Shown piece after piece: positions 511 to 19,068 of a DNA stretch of 21,182 nucleotides (position 1 is the first letter of the stretch; every line of letters starts with the position of its first letter). Origin of the DNA: a virus; IMG/VR virus record IMGVR_UViG_3300039191_000483, positions 7,638 through 28,819 of that record; one strand, 5' to 3'. The notes under the pieces were generated by a model that saw nothing but the letters and a program-made list of their open reading frames with translations, made no database searches and was not told the DNA's origin. The position numbers and the translations under genes are program-made.

Positions 511-1116
511 TTATTTATAATCTTTAGTTTTAATATGTAAACCGCCTTTATACCACCTCTTAATACCGTTTGGGTATATCATAGCTGGCTTATCTCCATC
601 CCTGTGTAATTCACCATTTTGGTACCAATGCTTATAACCATCATAACCAATAACAGCTGGTTTGTCCCCATCCCTGTGTAGTAAGCCATTCTGATACCAA
701 TACTTACTTCCATTAGCCGTTATAACAGCTGGCTTATCTCCATCCCTGTGTAATTCACCATTTTGGTACCAAGCTTTACCCCCATCAGTTCTTATTATAG
801 CTGGTTTATCTCCTTCACGGTGTAATTTATCATGCTTATACCATTGCTTGGTTCCATTAGCCGTTATAACAGCTGGTTTGTCCCCATCCCTATGTAATTC
901 ACCATGTTTAACCCAAGCTTTACCCCCATCAGTTCTTATTAGAGCTGGCTTATCTCCATCTCGGTGGTGTAACCCATGCTTATACCAAGACTTAGTACCA
1001 TATTCATCAATGATTGGATTGTCATCCATATCATGATTATGATACTCACCATTGATATCAAAATAGTCAGATTCACCATCAGCATAGGTCATATGATATG
1101 TTTTATCATTAACCAT
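511..1116 (-). CDS. WYxxGxLHRDGDKPA 24-residue repeat protein (MORN-like), paralogue 1
   Basis: This 201-aa protein has a conserved leader (residues 1-43, including MTYADGESDYFDINGEYHNH) followed by six exact 24-residue repeats (residues 44-187) and a partial seventh ending in KTKDYK. Each repeat reads roughly WY[KQ][HN]GxLHR[DE]GDKPAxI then a variable x-G-x-K segment. Related tryptophan/glycine repeats, akin to MORN-repeat variants, are found in many bacteria and large DNA viruses; their role is poorly defined, and they may form an elongated beta-hairpin stack. There is no signal peptide or membrane segment. The gene starts 7 nt after the RNase R stop and is the longest of three paralogues in this window (others at 5263-5571 and 18586-19068). 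Confidence 0.85.
   Translation of the reverse strand: MVNDKTYHMTYADGESDYFDINGEYHNHDMDDNPIIDEYGTKSWYKHGLHHRDGDKPALIRTDGGKAWVKHGELHRDGDKPAVITANGTKQWYKHDKLHREGDKPAIIRTDGGKAWYQNGELHRDGDKPAVITANGSKYWYQNGLLHRDGDKPAVIGYDGYKHWYQNGELHRDGDKPAMIYPNGIKRWYKGGLHIKTKDYK
556..987 (-). repeat. six in-frame 72-bp tandem repeats within the repeat-protein gene
   Basis: Six 72-bp units encode the 24-residue repeats. The conserved DNA core of each unit, on the plus strand, is close to agctggcttatctccatcc. Units differ mainly in the codons before each tryptophan. A 40-nt stretch at 693-732 is identical to one in the distant paralogue at 18609-18648, which suggests exchange between loci. Confidence 0.85.
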
Positions 1117-1123
1117 CTTTAAA

Positions 1124-3067
1124 CTAATCTATCCAGAGGAATAAACCATCAATTGTTTTACGTTCAACATCAACTGCCTTAATAGTAATGTTAACCTTAT
1201 CACCTAATCGAACAACTCGACCCGTGTTATAACCTTTTATTTGGTGTTTATCTAATTCAGCAATATATGTATCGCCACCTATTTCAGATATCCTAACCAT
1301 ACATTCTGAACCAACATCTGGCATTTCAACGAACATACCATAATCGGTTATTGAACTTACAACACCTTTATAGACTTTACCAATTTTATCTTCCATATAA
1401 ATGCACTGCATATACTTGATAGAATCTCTTGAAGCTTTCTGTGCTTTCCTTTCCCTTTCGGACAAGTGTTTACACCTACCTTCAAGTCTTGAAGTGTTTG
1501 TTTCAGTCTTGTTCTCTAAATACCTTCCAAGCATTCTATGAACAATCACATCTGGATATCTTCTAATTGGAGATGTGAAATGTGAATAATGTTCAAAACC
1601 TAAACCATAATGTCCAATGTCCTCAGCAGTATATACTGCTTTTTGCATTGTTCTTATGACTAAGTTACTAATTATATTTTCCTCAGATGTACCTTTAACA
1701 TCATCTAATAGTTGATTAAGTGTGTTTGTTATCTCAACTGGATTATTCAACTTAATATCATATTCCAATGGACGGATAAACTCTTTCAAAGCAACTAGCT
1801 TCTCCATGTTAGGTTCATCGTGAGCTCTATTAACACAAGCACCTTTACTCTTAAGATATTGTGCAACCCTTCTGTTTGCCAGAAGCATATACTCTTCGAT
1901 TAACTTATTAGCATCCTTTGAGACCTTGAAGTCAATACCGATTGGTTGACTATCCTCATCCAATCTAAACCTAACCTCACGCTTATCAAATGATATTGAA
2001 CCACGAGTGAATCGCTTAGCTCTCATCTTCTTAGCTGTTTTATCTAGGTTAAGAACTGCTTGGTGTAACATTCCACTTGATACCATATCCTTCGGTAGAT
2101 TACCAAGCCCAACATTCTCTAAATTTGGATTTTCAATAATCTCTTGTGCTTCTTCATAGGTAAATCTATGGTTTGAGTGAATCACAGTCCTTCCGAACCA
2201 CTCATTCAACACATGTCCATTTTGGTCAAGTGTAAAGACTGCGGAGAAACATAACTTATCTTCATGTGGTCTCAATGAACATACACCGTTTGATAATCTC
2301 TCTGGAAGCATTGGTACCACCCTATCAACTAGATAGATTGACGTACCTCTTTTATATGCTTCCTTATCCAAAGAAGTGTCTGGCCTTACATAATGTGAGA
2401 CATCAGCAATGTGAACACCAACTTGCATTTTACCATTCACCCATTCAACACTCAAAGCATCATCAAAATCCTTTGCGGTTTCTGGGTCAATAGTGAATGT
2501 TAATACATCGCGCATGTCTCTACGCTTAGCTATTTCATCCTCTGGAATCTCCGTTGATATGATATTAGCTTCTGCTTCAACATATTCATCAAACTTGTAT
2601 GGTAAATCATACTCATGTAATATGGAATGAATTTCAGCTTCATTCTCACCAGCATTACCTAATACTTCAAGTATTTTACCATTAGGTGATTTAGCATCAT
2701 CTTTCCAATTGGTAATTTTACCAACAGCTTTTTGACCATCTTCACCACCTTTTAATTTACTAAGTGGTATGAATATATCAATCGGCATTTTATTTGAATC
2801 TGGAACTAGGAATGCATATCTATCTGAAACTTGTAAAGTTCCAACAAATTCATCCTTAAATCTTTCCAAGACCTCTATAATTTTACCTTCCATTGGTCTT
2901 CCCTTACCTACAATGACTTCAATCATTACTTGGTCAAGGTGTAAAGCTTTGTTAGTATTTTTTTTGTGAATGTAGATGTCTTTTGGTAAGTCATCACTCA
3001 CAAGGTAAGCTGAACCACTTGCGTTCATACTTAATCTTCCTTCTATTTTATCTCCTATTTTTATCAT
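1124..3067 (-). CDS. rnr: RNase R / RNase II-family 3'-5' exoribonuclease
   Basis: This is a processive 3'-to-5' exoribonuclease of the RNB family (647 aa). Residues 1-170 resemble the two cold-shock OB-folds. The RNB catalytic block contains DPETAKDFDDAL at about 194-205, with all four metal-binding aspartates (194, 200, 202, 203). It also has SNGVCSLRPHEDKLCFS and the hallmark HFTSPIRRYPDVIVHR with its catalytic arginines. A C-terminal S1 domain (GVVSSITDYGMFVEM) follows. It is shorter than E. coli RNase R (about 813 aa) because the N-terminal helix-turn-helix and the basic C-terminal tail are missing. The gene ends with TAG, so TAG is a true stop in this genome. It lies in an operon between an unknown charged protein and a repeat protein. 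In a phage it could degrade host mRNA, recycle nucleotides or help remodel RNA; that role is inferred. Confidence 0.95.
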   Translation of the reverse strand: MIKIGDKIEGRLSMNASGSAYLVSDDLPKDIYIHKKNTNKALHLDQVMIEVIVGKGRPMEGKIIEVLERFKDEFVGTLQVSDRYAFLVPDSNKMPIDIFIPLSKLKGGEDGQKAVGKITNWKDDAKSPNGKILEVLGNAGENEAEIHSILHEYDLPYKFDEYVEAEANIISTEIPEDEIAKRRDMRDVLTFTIDPETAKDFDDALSVEWVNGKMQVGVHIADVSHYVRPDTSLDKEAYKRGTSIYLVDRVVPMLPERLSNGVCSLRPHEDKLCFSAVFTLDQNGHVLNEWFGRTVIHSNHRFTYEEAQEIIENPNLENVGLGNLPKDMVSSGMLHQAVLNLDKTAKKMRAKRFTRGSISFDKREVRFRLDEDSQPIGIDFKVSKDANKLIEEYMLLANRRVAQYLKSKGACVNRAHDEPNMEKLVALKEFIRPLEYDIKLNNPVEITNTLNQLLDDVKGTSEENIISNLVIRTMQKAVYTAEDIGHYGLGFEHYSHFTSPIRRYPDVIVHRMLGRYLENKTETNTSRLEGRCKHLSERERKAQKASRDSIKYMQCIYMEDKIGKVYKGVVSSITDYGMFVEMPDVGSECMVRISEIGGDTYIAELDKHQIKGYNTGRVVRLGDKVNITIKAVDVERKTIDGLFLWID

Positions 3068-5237: not shown

Positions 5238-5264
5238 GAAAAAACCCTCAAAATTTGAGGGTTT
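5236..5264 (-). terminator. intrinsic terminator after repeat-protein paralogue 2
   Basis: A perfect 11-bp inverted repeat (aaaccctcaaa at 5242-5252 and tttgagggttt at 5254-5264) is followed, on the minus strand, by a T-rich tail (TTTTTTCTT). It overlaps the stop codon of the gene ending at 5263. This is the clearest rho-independent terminator in the window. Confidence 0.88.
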
Positions 5265-5571
5265 ATTTGATTTCAACTCTAATGCGTAAGCCATTCTGAT
5301 ACCAATACTTACTTCCATCAGCATATATAACCGCTGGCTTATCTCCATCTCGGTGTAGTAAAGCATTCTGATACCAAGACTTACCCCCATTAGGGTATAT
5401 CAGAGCTGGTTTATCATCATCTCTGTGTAATTGACCATGCTTATACCAAGACTTCCATTGAAGTATATCAATAATTGGTTCATCTAATTCATGATTATGG
5501 TACTCACCATTGATATCAAAATAGTCAGATTGACCATCGGCATAAATCATTTGTATTGGTTTATCAACCAT
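5263..5571 (-). CDS. WYxxGxLHRDGDKPA repeat protein, paralogue 2 (short)
   Basis: This 102-aa paralogue has the same leader as the other two copies (MIYADGQSDYFDINGEYHNH), two full 24-residue repeats (SWYKHGQLHRDDDKPAL and SWYQNALLHRDGDKPAV) and a partial third (WYQNGLRIRVEIK). The end of the third repeat is altered, as if truncated or recombined. I start it at the ATG at 5571-5569 (MVDKPIQM), which aligns with the other copies. This start overlaps the upstream zinc-motif gene by 8 nt. The stop lies inside the terminator hairpin, so this is the last gene of a long operon. Function unknown; see the paralogue at 511-1116. Confidence 0.82.
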   Translation of the reverse strand: MVDKPIQMIYADGQSDYFDINGEYHNHELDEPIIDILQWKSWYKHGQLHRDDDKPALIYPNGGKSWYQNALLHRDGDKPAVIYADGSKYWYQNGLRIRVEIK

Positions 5572-5806
5572 TTCTAGATTTAATACGATTAACAACCTCC
5601 ATTATAATATCATAACTAGCTGGGTCATCCTCTTTAATTTGATTTAATTCAAGAGACGATAATGGTTTTAGATTCAGTTCTTCGTCAAACTTATTGATAG
5701 CAGCACATTCGAAACATATTGAAATATCGTTAGGTTTAGGTGCATCATCGTGGTCAACACCAGTGGCACCATTTACTTCTGATTTACATTCTGGACAAAT
5801 TCTCAT
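5564..5806 (-). CDS. small zinc-binding protein (CxxC...CxxC)
   Basis: This 80-aa protein has two cysteine pairs, CPEC near residue 4 and CFEC near residue 31, which would bind one zinc ion as a zinc ribbon. A helical C-terminal half (LSSLELNQIKEDDPASYD) follows. Small proteins with this layout (CP.C..., a P..ND/GDI..C..C motif, then a helical tail) are common in phages and have no assigned role. The start lies 3 nt after the stop of a 31-residue membrane peptide. The end overlaps the next gene by 8 nt. Confidence 0.8.
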   Translation of the reverse strand: MRICPECKSEVNGATGVDHDDAPKPNDISICFECAAINKFDEELNLKPLSSLELNQIKEDDPASYDIIMEVVNRIKSRNG

Positions 5807-5809
5807 AAT

Positions 5810-5905
5810 TTAACTTTTTAATGCTAATGCAATAGTAACACCAATCAATAACCATAAAGGAAATAACATTATGATAGTTGTTAATATTTCATCTAATTTT
5901 TTCAT
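5810..5905 (-). CDS. 31-residue single-pass membrane peptide
   Basis: From the ATG at 5905-5903, a 31-codon ORF encodes a charged start (MKKLDEIL), one hydrophobic segment (TTIIMLFPLWLLIGVTIAL) and a short ALKS tail, ending at TAA 5812-5810. It fits exactly between two genes: 5 nt after the upstream TGA and 3 nt before the next ATG. That spacing argues it is real rather than a gap. Short membrane peptides of this kind in phages can act on the host envelope, on lysis timing or as inhibitors; nothing here shows which. Confidence 0.72.
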   Translation of the reverse strand: MKKLDEILTTIIMLFPLWLLIGVTIALALKS

Positions 5906-5910
5906 AATAA

Positions 5911-7241: not shown

Positions 7242-7646
7242 TTATTTTCCATACCAGCAATAAACTGGTCTAATTGCTACAATTGAATAACTATCACCAT
7301 CTACTTGACCCCAATCCTCAGTGTAAACTCTAAACCCTCTTTTATTATGACCATCATGTGACATATTAATATCCCATTTCCCAAGGGTGGGGAACTTCTC
7401 TCCTTCTTCTGACTTCAACCACTTCCATACAATGTCAGTAATTTCGTCTGAACTTAATGGAACTGGAAACTTGTTAGCACCAGATGAATCAGACCAATAA
7501 AGAATAAAACCTTTCTTCGGGTCAATCTTCCAAGCGGCAACTGTTTGCTCTTTATCATCATGATATTGACTCATAAGAGCAAGCTTTATAGTTGCAAGTA
7601 GTTGTCCTTTACTACTACCGTTTACATTGAAAACTATATTATCCAT
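7242..7646 (-). CDS. unknown 134-aa protein
   Basis: Function not recognised. The protein starts MDNIVFNVNGSSKGQLLATI with a helix likely at residues 12-30, then FILYWSDSSGANKFPVPL, an acidic helical stretch (SDEITDIVWKWLKSEEGEK) and a C-terminal beta-rich part (DGDSYSIVAIRPVYCWYGK). It has no membrane segment and no obvious metal site. The start overlaps the stop of the tRNA-binding protein gene (TAATG), so translation of the two is probably coupled. That pairing is the only hint to function. Confidence 0.72.
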   Translation of the reverse strand: MDNIVFNVNGSSKGQLLATIKLALMSQYHDDKEQTVAAWKIDPKKGFILYWSDSSGANKFPVPLSSDEITDIVWKWLKSEEGEKFPTLGKWDINMSHDGHNKRGFRVYTEDWGQVDGDSYSIVAIRPVYCWYGK

Positions 7647-7996
7647 TACATAAGTCTTCCACCGACTGAGAATTTCTCAAGTCCAAGTTCAACACTATCT
7701 CCAAATTGTGAAGGCATAATCATTACCTCACTAGTAACACCCATCATCTTCACTGGTTCTAAATTCATAACAAATGGAAATACCTCTCCACCGAATTCCT
7801 CACCATCAAACACTCCACCTAAATTGGTTACACATGTTTGAACAACCTCTGGGTTATCATCATCAAATGATATTGCAAGCTTTAATAACTTATCACTCCC
7901 TTCAATTTTTTCAACTTGAACAACTCGACCTAGTTGAATAACTAATTTGTCTGCCATATCGACAAACTCTTTAAATGTAATCTTTGCTTTTTCCAT
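7646..7996 (-). CDS. stand-alone tRNA-binding OB-fold protein (EMAPII / CsaA / Trbp111 type)
   Basis: This 116-aa protein matches the tRNA-binding domain otherwise found at the C-terminus of bacterial MetRS and as free CsaA/Trbp111 proteins of about 110 aa. The opening VIQLGRVVQVEKIEGSDKLL (residues 19-38) and the closing NLEPVKMMGVTSEVMI (78-93) carry the family hallmarks: RV..VE...., ADKL-like, and NL.P.K.MG..SE.MI. The fold binds structured RNA, usually the outer corner of tRNA, often as a dimer. No synthetase domain is attached. The gene sits just upstream of a coupled unknown gene and the SAK-type HAD phosphatase. In a phage it could protect, deliver or sequester tRNAs, which is inference. 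The family call rests on visible motifs. Confidence 0.85.
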   Translation of the reverse strand: MEKAKITFKEFVDMADKLVIQLGRVVQVEKIEGSDKLLKLAISFDDDNPEVVQTCVTNLGGVFDGEEFGGEVFPFVMNLEPVKMMGVTSEVMIMPSQFGDSVELGLEKFSVGGRLM

Positions 7997-9272: not shown

Positions 9273-9518
9273 TTAAAAATCTAATCGATAGACGGAATTA
9301 TATGTTTTGAATATTGTGAAATCATCACCTTCCTCAAGAATTTCTTTAACTAAAGATGTCTTAAAACCATCAGTTCCGTTATAATAATAGAATATAAAAC
9401 ATTGGTTAATTGTAGGCTCATTAGTGAAATAACCGATTTTTATACCATTACCGTTTGAGTTTGGAATCTCAGCTTCATCATGGGTTTCCAATTTGCTTAA
9501 TGTTCCACTATGTTCCAC
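9273..9518 (-). CDS. unknown 81-aa protein, GTG start
   Basis: This ORF reads (GTG)EHSGTLSKLETHDEAEI... and ends VYRLDF-TAA. There is no ATG in the first third, so GTG at 9518-9516 is the likely start; it overlaps the radical-SAM gene by 11 nt. The overlap contains a 10-nt near-direct repeat (GTGGAACATA/GTGGAACATT on the minus strand), which may have created the overlap by duplication. The sequence looks beta-rich (GIKIGYFTNEPTINQCFIFYY). Function not recognised. Confidence 0.6.
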   Translation of the reverse strand: MEHSGTLSKLETHDEAEIPNSNGNGIKIGYFTNEPTINQCFIFYYYNGTDGFKTSLVKEILEEGDDFTIFKTYNSVYRLDF

Positions 9519-10374
9519 TTTCTTTTTCTAATTGAGTTAAGAACTGCCCACAACTTGCACCTATATCGTTACCTGGTGGTTCATAATATTCAGCTGTATG
9601 TCCAGCATTTTCTAAAAATTCAATAAATTGACTAATGTCTAACAATGAGGCTTTTTTAACATCTAAAGCTTCTCTCTCAGAATACATCATAAACTTAATT
9701 GTACAACCTTTCCTAACTAGTTTAGATAGTTTATCAATATGATGTAACATACTATCATTAACTCCACGCATAATAGTATAATGAACCTCAATTGGATTGC
9801 CAGTCATACTATGGTAAAAATTCAAGGCATCAATTGATGGTTGAATATCTAATCCTGATGGCATCCACTCCTTTCGTTGTACATCGTCAACAAAGTGAAG
9901 ACTTAAATGTAGTTTCAAATCTAATCCTAAATCCTTAACAAAGTTTGTTAATTTAAAAAATTCAGTCCATTTGGATTTAGGTAGTAATGTTGCTAGACCA
10001 AACCTAACATGTTCATATTGACCTTTTAATAAAATCATACTGTCAACTACAGCTCCAGTATTATCCAACGGTTCACCGCAACCCATATATGATATGAGAA
10101 GAGTTCGATTATTTAATCCAAGTTCTTCAACAATATAATCAACACCTTCAACAATATTTTCTGGAGATAAGTTATTTAACTTTATCTTCCCAACGTGGTC
10201 GGTCAAATGACAAAACTTACAACTCATATTACACATAGTTTGACATGGTACACAGATAATATCTTTACCACTACCATTATCAACATATGAGAATTCAATG
10301 ATTTGTTTATTTAATTCGAAGATATACTTTATCGTCTTATCAATCTCTGATTTTATAATTTGTTTTAATTCCAT
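9508..10374 (-). CDS. rlmN: short RlmN/Cfr-family radical-SAM RNA methyltransferase
   Basis: The N-terminal cluster ICVPCQTMCNMSCKFC contains the three iron-sulfur cysteines (48, 52, 55) of CxxxCxxC, plus Cys41 exactly seven residues before, equivalent to E. coli RlmN Cys118. The C-terminus has DIGASCGQF (Cys275), equivalent to Cys355, the residue that carries the methyl group. MGCGEPLDN, SLHFVDDVQRKEWMPS and the IMRGVNDS segment match RlmN landmarks. The protein therefore keeps the full machinery for C2 (or C8) adenine methylation. At 288 aa it is about 100 residues shorter than RlmN, because the N-terminal accessory RNA-binding region is almost absent. The gene follows IF-3 by 2 nt. The RNA target is unknown; host rRNA, tRNA or phage RNA are all open. 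Confidence 0.9.
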   Translation of the reverse strand: MELKQIIKSEIDKTIKYIFELNKQIIEFSYVDNGSGKDIICVPCQTMCNMSCKFCHLTDHVGKIKLNNLSPENIVEGVDYIVEELGLNNRTLLISYMGCGEPLDNTGAVVDSMILLKGQYEHVRFGLATLLPKSKWTEFFKLTNFVKDLGLDLKLHLSLHFVDDVQRKEWMPSGLDIQPSIDALNFYHSMTGNPIEVHYTIMRGVNDSMLHHIDKLSKLVRKGCTIKFMMYSEREALDVKKASLLDISQFIEFLENAGHTAEYYEPPGNDIGASCGQFLTQLEKESGT

Positions 10375-10376
10375 TA

Positions 10377-10934
10377 TTATTTTTTTTCTTCTTTTTTGGG
10401 TTTAAAGAATATATTCATTTTTCTACCATCCATTTTTGGCATCTTTTCAACTGTAGCGTAATCTTCTAATGCAACGGCCAATTCAAGAAGTAACTTTTCA
10501 CCTTGTTCTCTAAATCTATTCTCACGACCTTTGAAGAATACGAAAGCTTTAACCTTATGACCTTTCTTTAAAAAATTAATAATGTGATTTGTTTTAAATT
10601 TCAAATCATTCTCATCAGTAGTAGGTCTAAATCGCATCTCTTTCATCGGCTTAGACTTCTGAGCTGGTTTCTTCTTATTTTGTTCGTAAAGATATTTAGA
10701 ATAGTCCATCAACTTAACAACTGGTGGTGCAGCCTTAGCACCAACAAGTACTAAATCTTTACCTTCATTCTCAGCAACTTTTAGTGCTTCGTTAATTCCC
10801 ATGATTTCTGGTTCACCATTTTCAGAAACAAGTTTAACATCACTACCGTTAATTTCCCTGATGATTTCTCGGTTAATTCTGTGAGGATTTTTCTTAATTT
10901 CTCTTTTTTGATTTCTTCTGTGACGTTTAGCCAT
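10377..10934 (-). CDS. infC: translation initiation factor IF-3
   Basis: This is a full two-domain IF-3 (185 aa). The N-domain runs from about residue 18 (RINREIIREINGSDVKLVSENG) through APPVVKLMDYSKYLYEQ, with a basic linker after it. The C-domain carries MKEMRFRPTTDENDLKFK, FLKKGHKVKAFVFFKGRE and a KPKKEEKK tail. IF-3 binds the 30S subunit, prevents early 70S assembly and checks start codon and initiator tRNA. Its start overlaps the Nudix gene by 8 nt (ATGGCTAA). It begins with ATG, not the rare AUU by which cellular infC is typically autoregulated, so that control is likely lost. IF-3 is rare in phages. It may bias host ribosomes toward phage mRNAs, which is inference. Confidence 0.95.
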   Translation of the reverse strand: MAKRHRRNQKREIKKNPHRINREIIREINGSDVKLVSENGEPEIMGINEALKVAENEGKDLVLVGAKAAPPVVKLMDYSKYLYEQNKKKPAQKSKPMKEMRFRPTTDENDLKFKTNHIINFLKKGHKVKAFVFFKGRENRFREQGEKLLLELAVALEDYATVEKMPKMDGRKMNIFFKPKKEEKK

Positions 10935-11388
10935 TTTTTTCTTTTATATGTTTTTTTATTTGTTTCAATACTTCAATTTGTGTATCATGAAGTATCTCTT
11001 TAGCTTCTTTTAATGTAACCCATCTCCAACCATCCATTTCTGGCTTACCACCATTCCATTTACGACCAGCTGGTACTGTAGAATTACATCTAAATAGAAA
11101 ATCATCAGAGTTGACTTCTGGATTTTCATCTTCAAATACGACGAATGGATTTAATCGTTTACGTTTATTTTTATAACCGATAGAATCAAAATCATAATAT
11201 TTGGTAACTTTAGATAAGTTAACATTAGTCTCTTCCCATGTTTCTCTTTTTGCTGCAATCCAAGGTGTTTCACCTTCATCAAGTTTACCTTTTGGAATAC
11301 TCCAAAAATCAAAATCATGACCAGTTGGATGTGCTACCAACAACTTACCATTTTTATTAATAAAGAAAATACCAGCTGTTTCAGTCAT
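10927..11388 (-). CDS. Nudix hydrolase
   Basis: The Nudix box GKLDEGETPWIAAKRETWEE lies at residues 34-53 and has the REUXEE core, which binds magnesium and hydrolyses nucleoside diphosphates linked to another group. The protein (153 aa) opens with a strand set (TETAGIFFINKNGKLLVAH) and FWSIPKGKLDEGE, typical of MutT/Ap4A-type members. The substrate cannot be read from sequence. Possibilities include NTP sanitising, dinucleoside polyphosphates, NAD-type cofactors or RNA caps. The start overlaps the upstream gene stop (TAATG), and the end overlaps IF-3. Confidence 0.92.
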   Translation of the reverse strand: MTETAGIFFINKNGKLLVAHPTGHDFDFWSIPKGKLDEGETPWIAAKRETWEETNVNLSKVTKYYDFDSIGYKNKRKRLNPFVVFEDENPEVNSDDFLFRCNSTVPAGRKWNGGKPEMDGWRWVTLKEAKEILHDTQIEVLKQIKKHIKEKNG

Positions 11389-11849
11389 TATGACATTGGA
11401 TTAAGTTTAACCTCAAATACAGTTAATGAATCCTCAGTTTTACCATAATGTAACTTCTCTAAGGCTTTAATTTCATTCTTAGCATAGAAGTATGAAGTAT
11501 GTCTTTTATTATCTCTATCGGACCAAACAATAGTATAACTATTACCAACATTAACATTTGGTGAACCATCCTTTTCATTCACATCACCTTTTAAAACAGA
11601 TTGGAGTTGTCTTATATTTTCTAAAACACTACCCCAAGCTTGAATTTCAGTATTATGAGTTTGCTCACACAATAAAAAGAAATTATCATGTTTAGGATTA
11701 TAGGTGATTACTTTAATTTTTACACCATCTTTTTGAAATTTTGATTTTTCAAAATGAACAGTAACACCATTATCAGAATTTAACATATTCTGAATATCTG
11801 ATTGAATCTTAATGATTCTCTTATCTATAAAAACTTTTGGATTTCCCAT
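11388..11849 (-). CDS. unknown 153-aa protein, first gene of the IF-3 operon
   Basis: Not recognised. The protein starts MGNPKVFIDKRIIKIQSDIQ, with alternating strands and helices (GVKIKVITYNPKHDNFFLLCE, then AWGSVLENIRQLQ) and a lysine-rich region. It has no membrane segment and no clear metal site. The ATG at 11849 lies only 4 nt after a strong promoter -7 element, so the mRNA is probably leaderless. The stop overlaps the Nudix start (TAATG). Confidence 0.75.
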   Translation of the reverse strand: MGNPKVFIDKRIIKIQSDIQNMLNSDNGVTVHFEKSKFQKDGVKIKVITYNPKHDNFFLLCEQTHNTEIQAWGSVLENIRQLQSVLKGDVNEKDGSPNVNVGNSYTIVWSDRDNKRHTSYFYAKNEIKALEKLHYGKTEDSLTVFEVKLNPMS

Positions 11850-11853
11850 ATTA

Positions 11854-11886
11854 CAAATATAAGTAAAATATTTTAATTCTCCAAAA
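11854..11886 (-). promoter_or_regulatory. promoter of the IF-3 / RlmN-like operon
   Basis: On the minus strand TTTTG (11886-11882), 20 nt and TATATTTG (11861-11854) precede an ATG at 11849 by only 4 nt. It lies within the end of the upstream gene. Confidence 0.8.
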
Positions 11887-16098: not shown

Positions 16099-16944
16099 TT
16101 AATCACAATTTGATGGAATTAAATCATATAGATAATCCCAATCTTGAGTGAATATTGGTGTATCATAATCTATAACCCATTTTTTACGTAAAACTGTTGA
16201 ACTAGGTTCTATTGTATTAGAACCTTCTAAATCACCTCTACTTGTCGGAAGCTCGACTTCAATCTTTTTAATAATGGCACCACGTTTATACTTAGTGATG
16301 TAATCATTCCAGTTAACACCCTTCTGAAACATCATCTCTTGTTTCTCATCGGATGATTTACCCATCAATTCTTTGTGTGAGTATAAAGCATCTGCTGCCA
16401 TACTAATTGAGTTCCTAGTAGCATCTTGCTGTCTCCAAACAATACAGTTTGCGACCTCTTTAATGTGTGGTATAACATAAACTCTGGAATCAAACTCAAC
16501 ATCAACTAATAAATCACCTTTTAAAAGGTCATTAACTAACACACCACTATCTTCGTATGTGTCGTATTTATGAGCTTTTAATAATGTTAACTTCTTATTA
16601 AATGAAGCGGTTGCCCTTGCTGCTGTAAGTGAGCAAATCTTTTGAACCTTACCTTTAAACATAGCTTCTTGGTTCTCACCAAAATCGGTGAAGACCAATG
16701 TAATCTCATCTGATTGGGTGTATGCGAATGCTGGGTTGAATTTCTTACACATTTCAACAGCTGCATCATTCATTGCCTCAGAAAAATCTGGGTCAAATGG
16801 TTTGTTCATCCCTTTGGTGAACTTTGAGAAACCTCTACCATCAACACGTACAATAGTATATGTCCTTGGTGGAATCATAGTACTATAACAAGCCTCATAG
16901 TGTTTCATACGTGAACTTAAATTATTTTTTCCATTTATACCCAT
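16099..16944 (-). CDS. thg1: Thg1-type 3'-5' RNA polymerase (tRNA-His guanylyltransferase-like)
   Basis: This 281-aa protein has the Thg1 catalytic signatures: PRTYTIVRVDGRGFSKFTK (Asp35, metal site A), FAYTQSDEITLVF (Asp79/Glu80), and IVWRQQDATRNSI (about 168-180), with RGAIIKK further on. Thg1 adds a guanosine to the 5' end of tRNA-His. Thg1-like proteins in bacteria and phages instead repair 5'-truncated tRNAs by 3'-to-5' polymerisation. The frameshifted stub upstream runs into this gene, so the true start may be the ATG at 16944 (its LSSRMKHYE aligns with the family) or the ATG at 16908. The gene lies downstream of prs and a HAD. A tRNA-repair role fits the context but is inferred. Confidence 0.93.
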   Translation of the reverse strand: MGINGKNNLSSRMKHYEACYSTMIPPRTYTIVRVDGRGFSKFTKGMNKPFDPDFSEAMNDAAVEMCKKFNPAFAYTQSDEITLVFTDFGENQEAMFKGKVQKICSLTAARATASFNKKLTLLKAHKYDTYEDSGVLVNDLLKGDLLVDVEFDSRVYVIPHIKEVANCIVWRQQDATRNSISMAADALYSHKELMGKSSDEKQEMMFQKGVNWNDYITKYKRGAIIKKIEVELPTSRGDLEGSNTIEPSSTVLRKKWVIDYDTPIFTQDWDYLYDLIPSNCD

Positions 16945-18585: not shown

Positions 18586-19068
18586 TTATTTAATAAATTT
18601 ATCATTACGATACCAATACTTACTTCCATTAGCCGTTATAACAGCTGGTCCACCATCCCTGTGTGATTTACCATTCTGATACCACATTTTACTCCCAGTA
18701 GACAATATCATAGCTGGCTTATCTCCATCACGGTGTAGTAAACCATTCTGATACCAATGCATTTCTCCATTTGGATGAGTCACAGCTGGACCACATTCCA
18801 TAGTTCCATTGACATGTATAATAGCTGGCTTATCTCCTTCACGGTGTAGTAAGCCATTCTGATACCAAAAATATTCACCATCTGATGAAATAGCAGCTGG
18901 CTTATCTCCATCACGATGGCGTAAACCATGCTTATACCAAGACTTAGTACCATATTCGTCAATGATTGGATTGTCATCCATATCATGATTATGGTACTCA
19001 CCATTGATATCAAACCAATCACTATCACCATCAGCATAAGTCATTTGATATATTTTATCACCAATCAT
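18586..19068 (-). CDS. WYxxGxLHRDGDKPA repeat protein, paralogue 3
   Basis: This 160-aa paralogue has the same leader as the other two copies (MTYADGDSDWFDINGEYHNH), then repeats WYKHGLRHRDGDKPAAI and WYQNGLLHREGDKPAII. A unit lacking 11 residues follows (CGPAVTHPNGEMH, missing the WY..GxLHR part), then WYQNGLLHRDGDKPAMI, WYQNGKSHRDGGPAVI (one residue short) and a partial WYRNDKFIK. The 33-nt loss keeps the frame, so these genes appear to change by unit recombination. The start is 4 nt after a strong -7 element. It is the first gene of the operon with prs. Function unknown. Confidence 0.84.
   Translation of the reverse strand: MIGDKIYQMTYADGDSDWFDINGEYHNHDMDDNPIIDEYGTKSWYKHGLRHRDGDKPAAISSDGEYFWYQNGLLHREGDKPAIIHVNGTMECGPAVTHPNGEMHWYQNGLLHRDGDKPAMILSTGSKMWYQNGKSHRDGGPAVITANGSKYWYRNDKFIK

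What the first reader, a model, noticed from the sequence alone, without database searches (positions are those of the whole stretch)
10377..10934. Phage-encoded translation initiation factor IF-3
A full two-domain IF-3 is coupled to a Nudix hydrolase and an RlmN-like methylase. In E. coli, IF-3 discriminates against leaderless mRNAs and non-AUG starts. This genome appears to use leaderless genes yet carries its own IF-3, so the phage version may have changed selectivity. It also begins with ATG rather than the AUU that typically allows cellular autoregulation.
Basis: partly seen in the sequence, partly recalled or inferred. Interest (0 to 1): 0.7.

Follow-up and report, generated by a model that had tools for sequence, protein, structure and literature searches.

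The report
Jumbo-phage initiation factor with shortened linker
A giant phage of Bacteroidota bacteria carries its own intact copy of translation initiation factor IF-3, in an operon whose first gene appears to lack a leader; its lineage has shortened the linker between the factor's two domains, so the phage may change how host ribosomes choose start sites.

Summary
In detail: 10377-10934 (minus strand) encodes a complete 185-aa two-domain IF-3 that overlaps a Nudix gene by 8 nt and is followed 2 nt later by an RlmN-like gene. The 28.8-kb record is phage; its closest relatives are 353-kb and 362-kb contigs with terminase, tmRNA, SmpB and RNase R. The IF-3 belongs to one phage clade nested inside Bacteroidota IF-3 (bootstrap 98), about 70% identical to the nearest phage and at most 51% to any host sampled. 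Phage IF-3 itself is already known. Best explanation: a working IF-3 acting on host 30S subunits during infection, probably with altered start-site discrimination. That alteration, and any feedback on its own operon, are untested inferences. The ATG start is not phage-specific.

The parts
10377..10934 (-). IF-3 gene, 185 aa, ATG start; N-domain about residues 26-89, short lysine-rich linker about 84-97, C-domain 97-180
10927..11388 (-). Nudix hydrolase (closest curated models: RNA pyrophosphohydrolase, below cut-off); overlaps IF-3 by 8 nt
11388..11849 (-). first cistron of the predicted IF-3 operon, 153 aa, no Pfam family; shares 1 nt with the Nudix gene
11854..11861 (-). predicted Bacteroidota -7 promoter element TATATTTG, 4 nt before the ATG at 11849, with TTTTGG at 11886-11881; predicts a leaderless transcript
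   Evidence: spacing rule from PMC6847099
9508..10374 (-). RlmN/Cfr-like radical-SAM protein, 288 aa; lacks the N-terminal ~84 aa of E. coli RlmN but keeps Cys118, Cys125/129/132 and Cys355
1124..3067 (-). RNase R (over curated cut-off), in the conserved IF-3 neighbourhood
7646..7996 (-). free-standing tRNA-binding domain (PF01588), conserved in the neighbourhood
16099..16944 (-). Thg1-type tRNA-His guanylyltransferase, conserved in the neighbourhood of several relatives

Best explanation
This is an intact IF-3 acquired long ago from a Bacteroidota host by a lineage of jumbo phages and kept since then next to RNA-handling genes (Thg1, Nudix, RNase R, SmpB; tmRNA elsewhere in the genomes of relatives). 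Shown by sequence: identity, phage context, clade membership, operon overlaps, shortened linker, leaderless promoter positions. Inferred: during infection it competes with host IF-3 on 30S subunits, keeps subunits free for new initiation after termination or rescue, and checks the start codon. The shorter linker limits how far the N-domain (platform/tRNA elbow) and the C-domain (P site) can spread, and so probably changes start-site discrimination, most simply by making the factor more tolerant of the leaderless phage mRNAs that host-type IF-3 disfavours. Because the operon starts with a leaderless cistron and IF-3 is reached by coupled translation, both known to be lowered by excess IF-3 in E. 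coli, the operon may also limit its own IF-3 level, in place of the AUU-type feedback.
For: Identity. Phage context: terminase in 353/362/369/436-kb relatives, tmRNA over the gathering score in four relatives, SmpB in all short-linker relatives searched, conserved order Prs-Thg1-phosphoesterase-HAD-Nudix-IF3-HAD-RNaseR-SmpB-sigma. Bacteroidota origin: clade of 19 at 98/91 inside Bacteroidota; holding the chromosomal copies together without phages is rejected, p-AU 0.0027. Linker: 20 residues in 54/54 Bacteroidota and 6/6 other bacterial copies; 15-17 in 16/18 phage relatives, 16 in the window. Linker shortening and start-site errors: PMC8266586. Leaderless: -7 element 3-7 nt before ATG in 24 genes of G002 (0.8 expected, 23 families) and 15 of G003 (0.8 expected); share of promoters 0.34 and 0.22 against 0.02 in four host genomes; transcription starts 4-5 nt after the element (PMC6847099). 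Operon. IF3 lowers leaderless translation (PMC9031893) and re-initiation (PMC2268962).
Against: No transcription starts or protein data exist; leaderless starts are read off promoter positions. The codon-contact residues are conserved, so discrimination may be unchanged. The linker statement rests on a citation whose source I could not read. Other huge-phage lineages with linkers of 20-22 also show a few leaderless-type promoters (2 of 7), so linker length and leaderlessness need not be linked. The leaderless operon head is seen clearly only in the window and in G002; other members start the operon differently. The window copy lacks two basic residues of E. coli IF3 (112 and 147), which could weaken 30S binding.
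Confidence: 0.5

Rival explanations
1. Ordinary IF-3 dosage: the phage supplies more of a host-like factor to keep ribosomal subunits recycled during heavy late translation; the linker change is neutral drift and selectivity is unchanged.
For: Codon-contact and platform residues conserved; IF-3 lies in a block with RNase R and SmpB, and tmRNA occurs in relatives, which suggests ribosome rescue and recycling; no RRF, IF-1 or (in the close clade) bS21 was found, so there is no wholesale initiation takeover kit.
Against: The linker is 20 residues in every bacterial copy aligned but short in nearly all clade members at about 40-70% identity to each other, so drift would have to be confined to this clade.
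Confidence: 0.3
2. Translation switch: phage IF-3 is a strong, host-like discriminator that shuts off leaderless (possibly early) mRNAs and its own leaderless-headed operon, moving ribosomes to leadered late mRNAs.
For: IF-3 antagonises leaderless mRNAs and re-initiation in E. coli; leaderless and leadered promoter classes coexist; the IF-3 operon is leaderless-headed in the window and in G002.
Against: Timing of the two gene classes is unknown; the linker shortening points, if anything, to relaxed discrimination.
Confidence: 0.15
3. The contig is a piece of bacterial chromosome and this is simply the host's infC.
For: The record is only 28.8 kb and no terminase or capsid gene was recognised in it (one search shows only a sub-threshold Gp23 match).
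Against: No thrS-infC-rpmI-rplT context; synteny with 353-369-kb contigs that carry terminase; IF-3 sits in a phage-only clade; phage A1-type DNA transfer protein, closest to Flavobacteriia phages.
Confidence: 0.02

Closest known systems
Bacterial IF-3 (infC) of Bacteroidota
   Same: Two domains, same family (TIGR00168), conserved Tyr75, Arg133 and Arg168 equivalents; the phage clade nests inside it
   Different: At most about 51% identity; linker 16 instead of 20; no thrS-rpmI-rplT context; ATG start where many host genes have only AUU/AUC/AUA
IF-3 of other huge phages (735-kb LR756501, 636-kb LR756504, 462-kb LR756500; compare Al-Shayeb et al. 2020, PMC7162821)
   Same: Phage-encoded full-length IF-3; that paper proposes redirection of host translation
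   Different: 42-44% identity, linker 20-22, placed outside the window's clade
IF-3 of Asteriusvirus 121Q/PBECO4 and Agrobacterium phage Atu_ph07 (compare PMC7824862)
   Same: Annotated phage IF-3 in cultured jumbo phages
   Different: 32-40% identity over part of the protein, long branches, linker 22, different neighbours
PHROG 9787 (translation initiation factor)
   Same: Window protein matches it over nearly full length, 134 bits
   Different: A family name only; no function tested here

Membership tests
IF-3 (infC, TIGR00168) | Whole-protein score over the curated equivalog cut-off | tested here: met
   160.1 bits against 60
IF-3 (infC, TIGR00168) | Both N- and C-terminal domains with the IF-3 fold | tested here: met
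   PF05198 and PF00707 over cut-off; AlphaFold2 plus Foldseek to 1tif, 1tig and 5lmn
IF-3 (infC, TIGR00168) | Residues near codon and platform (E. coli Y75, R99, R131, R133, R168) | tested here: met
   Y83, R103, K135 (conservative, also Lys in 26 of 54 hosts), R137, R171
IF-3 (infC, TIGR00168) | Interdomain linker of bacterial length (20 residues from Y75 to K94): conserved, but not a formal criterion of the family | tested here: not met
   16 in the window; 15-17 in 16 of 18 clade members; 20 in 60 of 60 bacterial copies. Treated as a variant feature, not as a reason to deny membership
IF-3 (infC, TIGR00168) | 30S binding, subunit anti-association, start-codon discrimination | not testable with these tools
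   needs biochemistry
Phage-encoded IF-3 of huge phages | Located in a phage genome | tested here: met
   terminase and synteny in large relatives
AUU-type autoregulated infC | Non-canonical start codon | tested here: not met
   ATG available in the window and in all relatives inspected (L055 was a regex artefact, its start is ATG)
Leaderless-headed operon | -7 element 4-5 nt before the first ATG | tested here: met
   TATATTTG taat ATG at 11861-11847
Leaderless-headed operon | Transcript 5' end at the start codon | not testable with these tools
   needs 5'-end mapping
RlmN/Cfr methyltransferase (neighbour) | Score over the RlmN equivalog cut-off | tested here: not met
   114 bits against 290; all five functional cysteines kept, N-terminal domain missing

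The most novel reading that the evidence does not exclude
A viral IF-3 whose shortened linker has re-tuned start-site selection so that host ribosomes accept leaderless viral mRNAs, with its own level set by feedback through a leaderless operon head and coupled translation instead of a rare start codon.
Probability: 0.2. Interest if true: 0.85.

Novelty: new variant of a known kind. Interest (0 to 1): 0.58.

Why it matters
Phage IF-3 has been reported for years, but as an annotation with a guessed role. Here a whole lineage keeps it, with a natural change in the one part of IF-3 (the linker) said to affect start-site accuracy, in genomes that use far more predicted leaderless genes than their hosts. 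That turns 'do phages re-programme initiation?' into a direct test: swap linkers and measure leaderless against leadered initiation on Bacteroidota ribosomes, which do not use Shine-Dalgarno pairing.

Tried and rejected
Close relatives by scanning IMG/VR with the IF-3 or the phosphoesterase alone: none found, so RNase R was used as bait. Loss of C-domain contacts as the source of changed selectivity: rejected, contacts conserved. Glu55 to Leu, fixed in the clade, looked striking but is Leu in the two best-matching solved IF-3 sequences too, so it is not phage-specific. 'ATG is special': rejected. A phage initiation kit with bS21, IF-1 and RRF: not found in the close clade (one bS21 in the distant 436-kb relative). 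tRNA, tmRNA or other Rfam RNAs inside the record: none. Clean correlation of linker length with leaderlessness: only partly holds (the linker-20 relatives G025/G032/G044 show no host-type promoters in the stretches held, but other huge phages with linker 20-22 show a few of both kinds; samples small). MT837394, the best GenBank 'phage' hit, groups within Bacteroides IF-3 and is probably host contamination. Two source papers on the linker are not held.

Full report
CHECK. The ORF 10377-10934 lies on the minus strand, starts with ATG and encodes 185 aa. It is IF-3 by every test: TIGR00168 at 160 bits against a cut-off of 60, both Pfam domains, PHROG 9787, IF-3 chains as best matches in the PDB, and a two-domain AlphaFold2 model (mean pLDDT 83.5) matched by Foldseek to solved IF3, most of it on 30S subunits. 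Chance is excluded.

WHERE IT IS. The window is 7638-28819 of a 28,819-base IMG/VR record. Outside the window the record also holds SmpB and a primary-type sigma factor. With RNase R as bait, 47 viral loci were fetched; 22 of those records carry IF-3. The gene order Prs - Thg1 - phosphoesterase - HAD - Nudix - IF3 - HAD - RNase R - SmpB - sigma recurs, with insertions and losses, in about 20 of them. The closest are a 353-kb (G002) and a 362-kb (G003) contig; they, a 369-kb and a 436-kb relative carry a terminase. Four relatives carry a tmRNA over the Rfam gathering score, two of them also by ARAGORN; 16 of 22 carry SmpB, including all searched members of the syntenic clade. The A1-type DNA transfer protein is closest to phages of Maribacter, Cellulophaga and Flavobacterium. 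So this is a jumbo-phage fragment, and the host is very probably a Bacteroidota.

DESCENT. A careful tree of 87 IF-3 sequences places the window in a clade of 19 phage proteins (bootstrap 98, SH-aLRT 91) inside Bacteroidota; with its two nearest it forms a 100/97 group (first tree). Forcing the chromosomal Bacteroidota copies together without the phages is rejected (p-AU 0.0027). Identity is 71% to G002, 68% to G003, at most 51% to any host copy sampled.

WHAT IS DIFFERENT. The stretch from E. coli Tyr75 to Lys94, the interdomain linker, is 20 residues in 54 of 54 Bacteroidota and in all 6 other bacterial copies in the alignment, but 15-17 in 16 of 18 phage-clade proteins and 16 in the window; other phage IF-3s have 20-22 (a cruder motif-based count agrees apart from misreads). 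A kinetic study of IF3 states, citing earlier work that I could not read, that shortening this linker leads to incorrect decoding of the start site and fitness loss (PMC8266586). By contrast the residues seen near the start codon and platform in 30S complexes (PMC5037330; my own mapping from Thermus to E. coli numbering) are kept: Tyr83, Arg103, Lys135, Gly136, Arg137, Arg171. Two basic residues of E. coli (112, 147) are Asn and Glu in the window.

LEADERLESS GENES. The phage relatives lack Shine-Dalgarno motifs (10 of 399 and 19 of 416 genes, fewer than in control windows), as Bacteroidota mRNAs do. In Flavobacterium johnsoniae transcription begins 4-5 nt after the -7 element TAHHTTTG and 87% of leaders exceed 10 nt (PMC6847099). 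In G002 this element stands 3-7 nt before the first ATG in 24 genes where 0.8 are expected (23 different families; 17 at exactly 4 nt), in G003 in 15 (0.8 expected). Among genes with a recognisable promoter the short-spacing share is 0.34 and 0.22, against 0.02 in four host genomes sampled here (Fisher p 5e-5 with the record's own genes pooled). Several of the same genes are leaderless in both phages. These are predictions from promoter position, with first-ATG starts; no 5' ends are mapped.

THE OPERON. In the window, TTTTGG-19-TATATTTG-taat-ATG starts the 153-aa ORF 11849-11388; its stop shares 1 nt with the Nudix ATG, the Nudix gene overlaps IF-3 by 8 nt, and the RlmN-like gene follows 2 nt after. 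In G002 the Nudix gene itself is the leaderless head and overlaps IF-3 by 23 nt. Across 16 members IF-3 overlaps or abuts an upstream ORF (gap 4 nt or less) in 13, although that ORF differs (about 40% of gene pairs are within 10 nt in these phages; binomial 0.0009, members not independent). In E. coli excess IF-3 lowers translation of leaderless mRNAs (PMC9031893; PMC4611024) and re-initiation at coupled cistrons (PMC2268962). Both features lie upstream of the phage IF-3, so negative feedback is plausible; this is inference.

START CODON. The AUU argument is weaker than stated: of 110 Bacteroidota infC loci, 59 have an in-frame ATG, 17 only GTG/TTG and 34 none of these, so AUU/AUC/AUA or CTG must serve. 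All phage-clade genes inspected can start at ATG.

HOW IT LIKELY WORKS. Shown: an intact phage IF-3 of host origin, its operon, the linker change, predicted leaderless genes. Inferred: it binds host 30S, prevents premature 50S joining and takes part in start selection, with altered discrimination owing to the short linker. Rivals are simple dosage/recycling support, in line with RNase R, SmpB and tmRNA in the same phages, and a switch from leaderless to leadered translation.

KNOWN OR NEW. Phage IF-3 is known (PMC7162821; PMC7824862; 71 GenBank phage records with matches, some of them probably host contamination). I found no description of the short linker or of IF-3 in a leaderless-headed phage operon in the papers searched, but the library lacks most subscription journals. 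Hence 'new variant of a known kind'.

Noticed in passing
record 5349-5906 (outside the window; L002) and L210-L214: The clade carries a full trans-translation set: SmpB and RNase R near IF-3, and a tmRNA gene elsewhere in at least four relatives (long predicted tag peptides of 25-31 aa in two).
   Followed up: partly
window 9508-10374: RlmN/Cfr-like protein lacking the N-terminal ~84 aa of E. coli RlmN but with all five functional cysteines; among clade loci a clear relative was seen only in G003 (57%).
   Followed up: partly
window 7646-7996: Free-standing tRNA-binding domain (PF01588), conserved across the clade, often next to the Nudix gene.
   Followed up: no
window 511-1116, 5263-5595, 18586-19068: Three paralogous proteins built of repeats like LHRDGDKPAVIxxxGxxxWYQNG; the two scanned (511-1116, 18586-19068) match no Pfam family.
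   Followed up: no
window 16099-16944: Thg1-type tRNA-His guanylyltransferase in a phage, conserved in several relatives.
   Followed up: no
L031, L035-L051: More distant relatives (RNase R 48-50% identical) show almost no Bacteroidota-type -7 elements, so they may use another promoter type or another host.
   Followed up: no
L166 (MK672802): A Vibrio anguillarum phage record contains thrS-infC-rpmI-rplT beside an integrase: either a captured host block or a prophage boundary.
   Followed up: no
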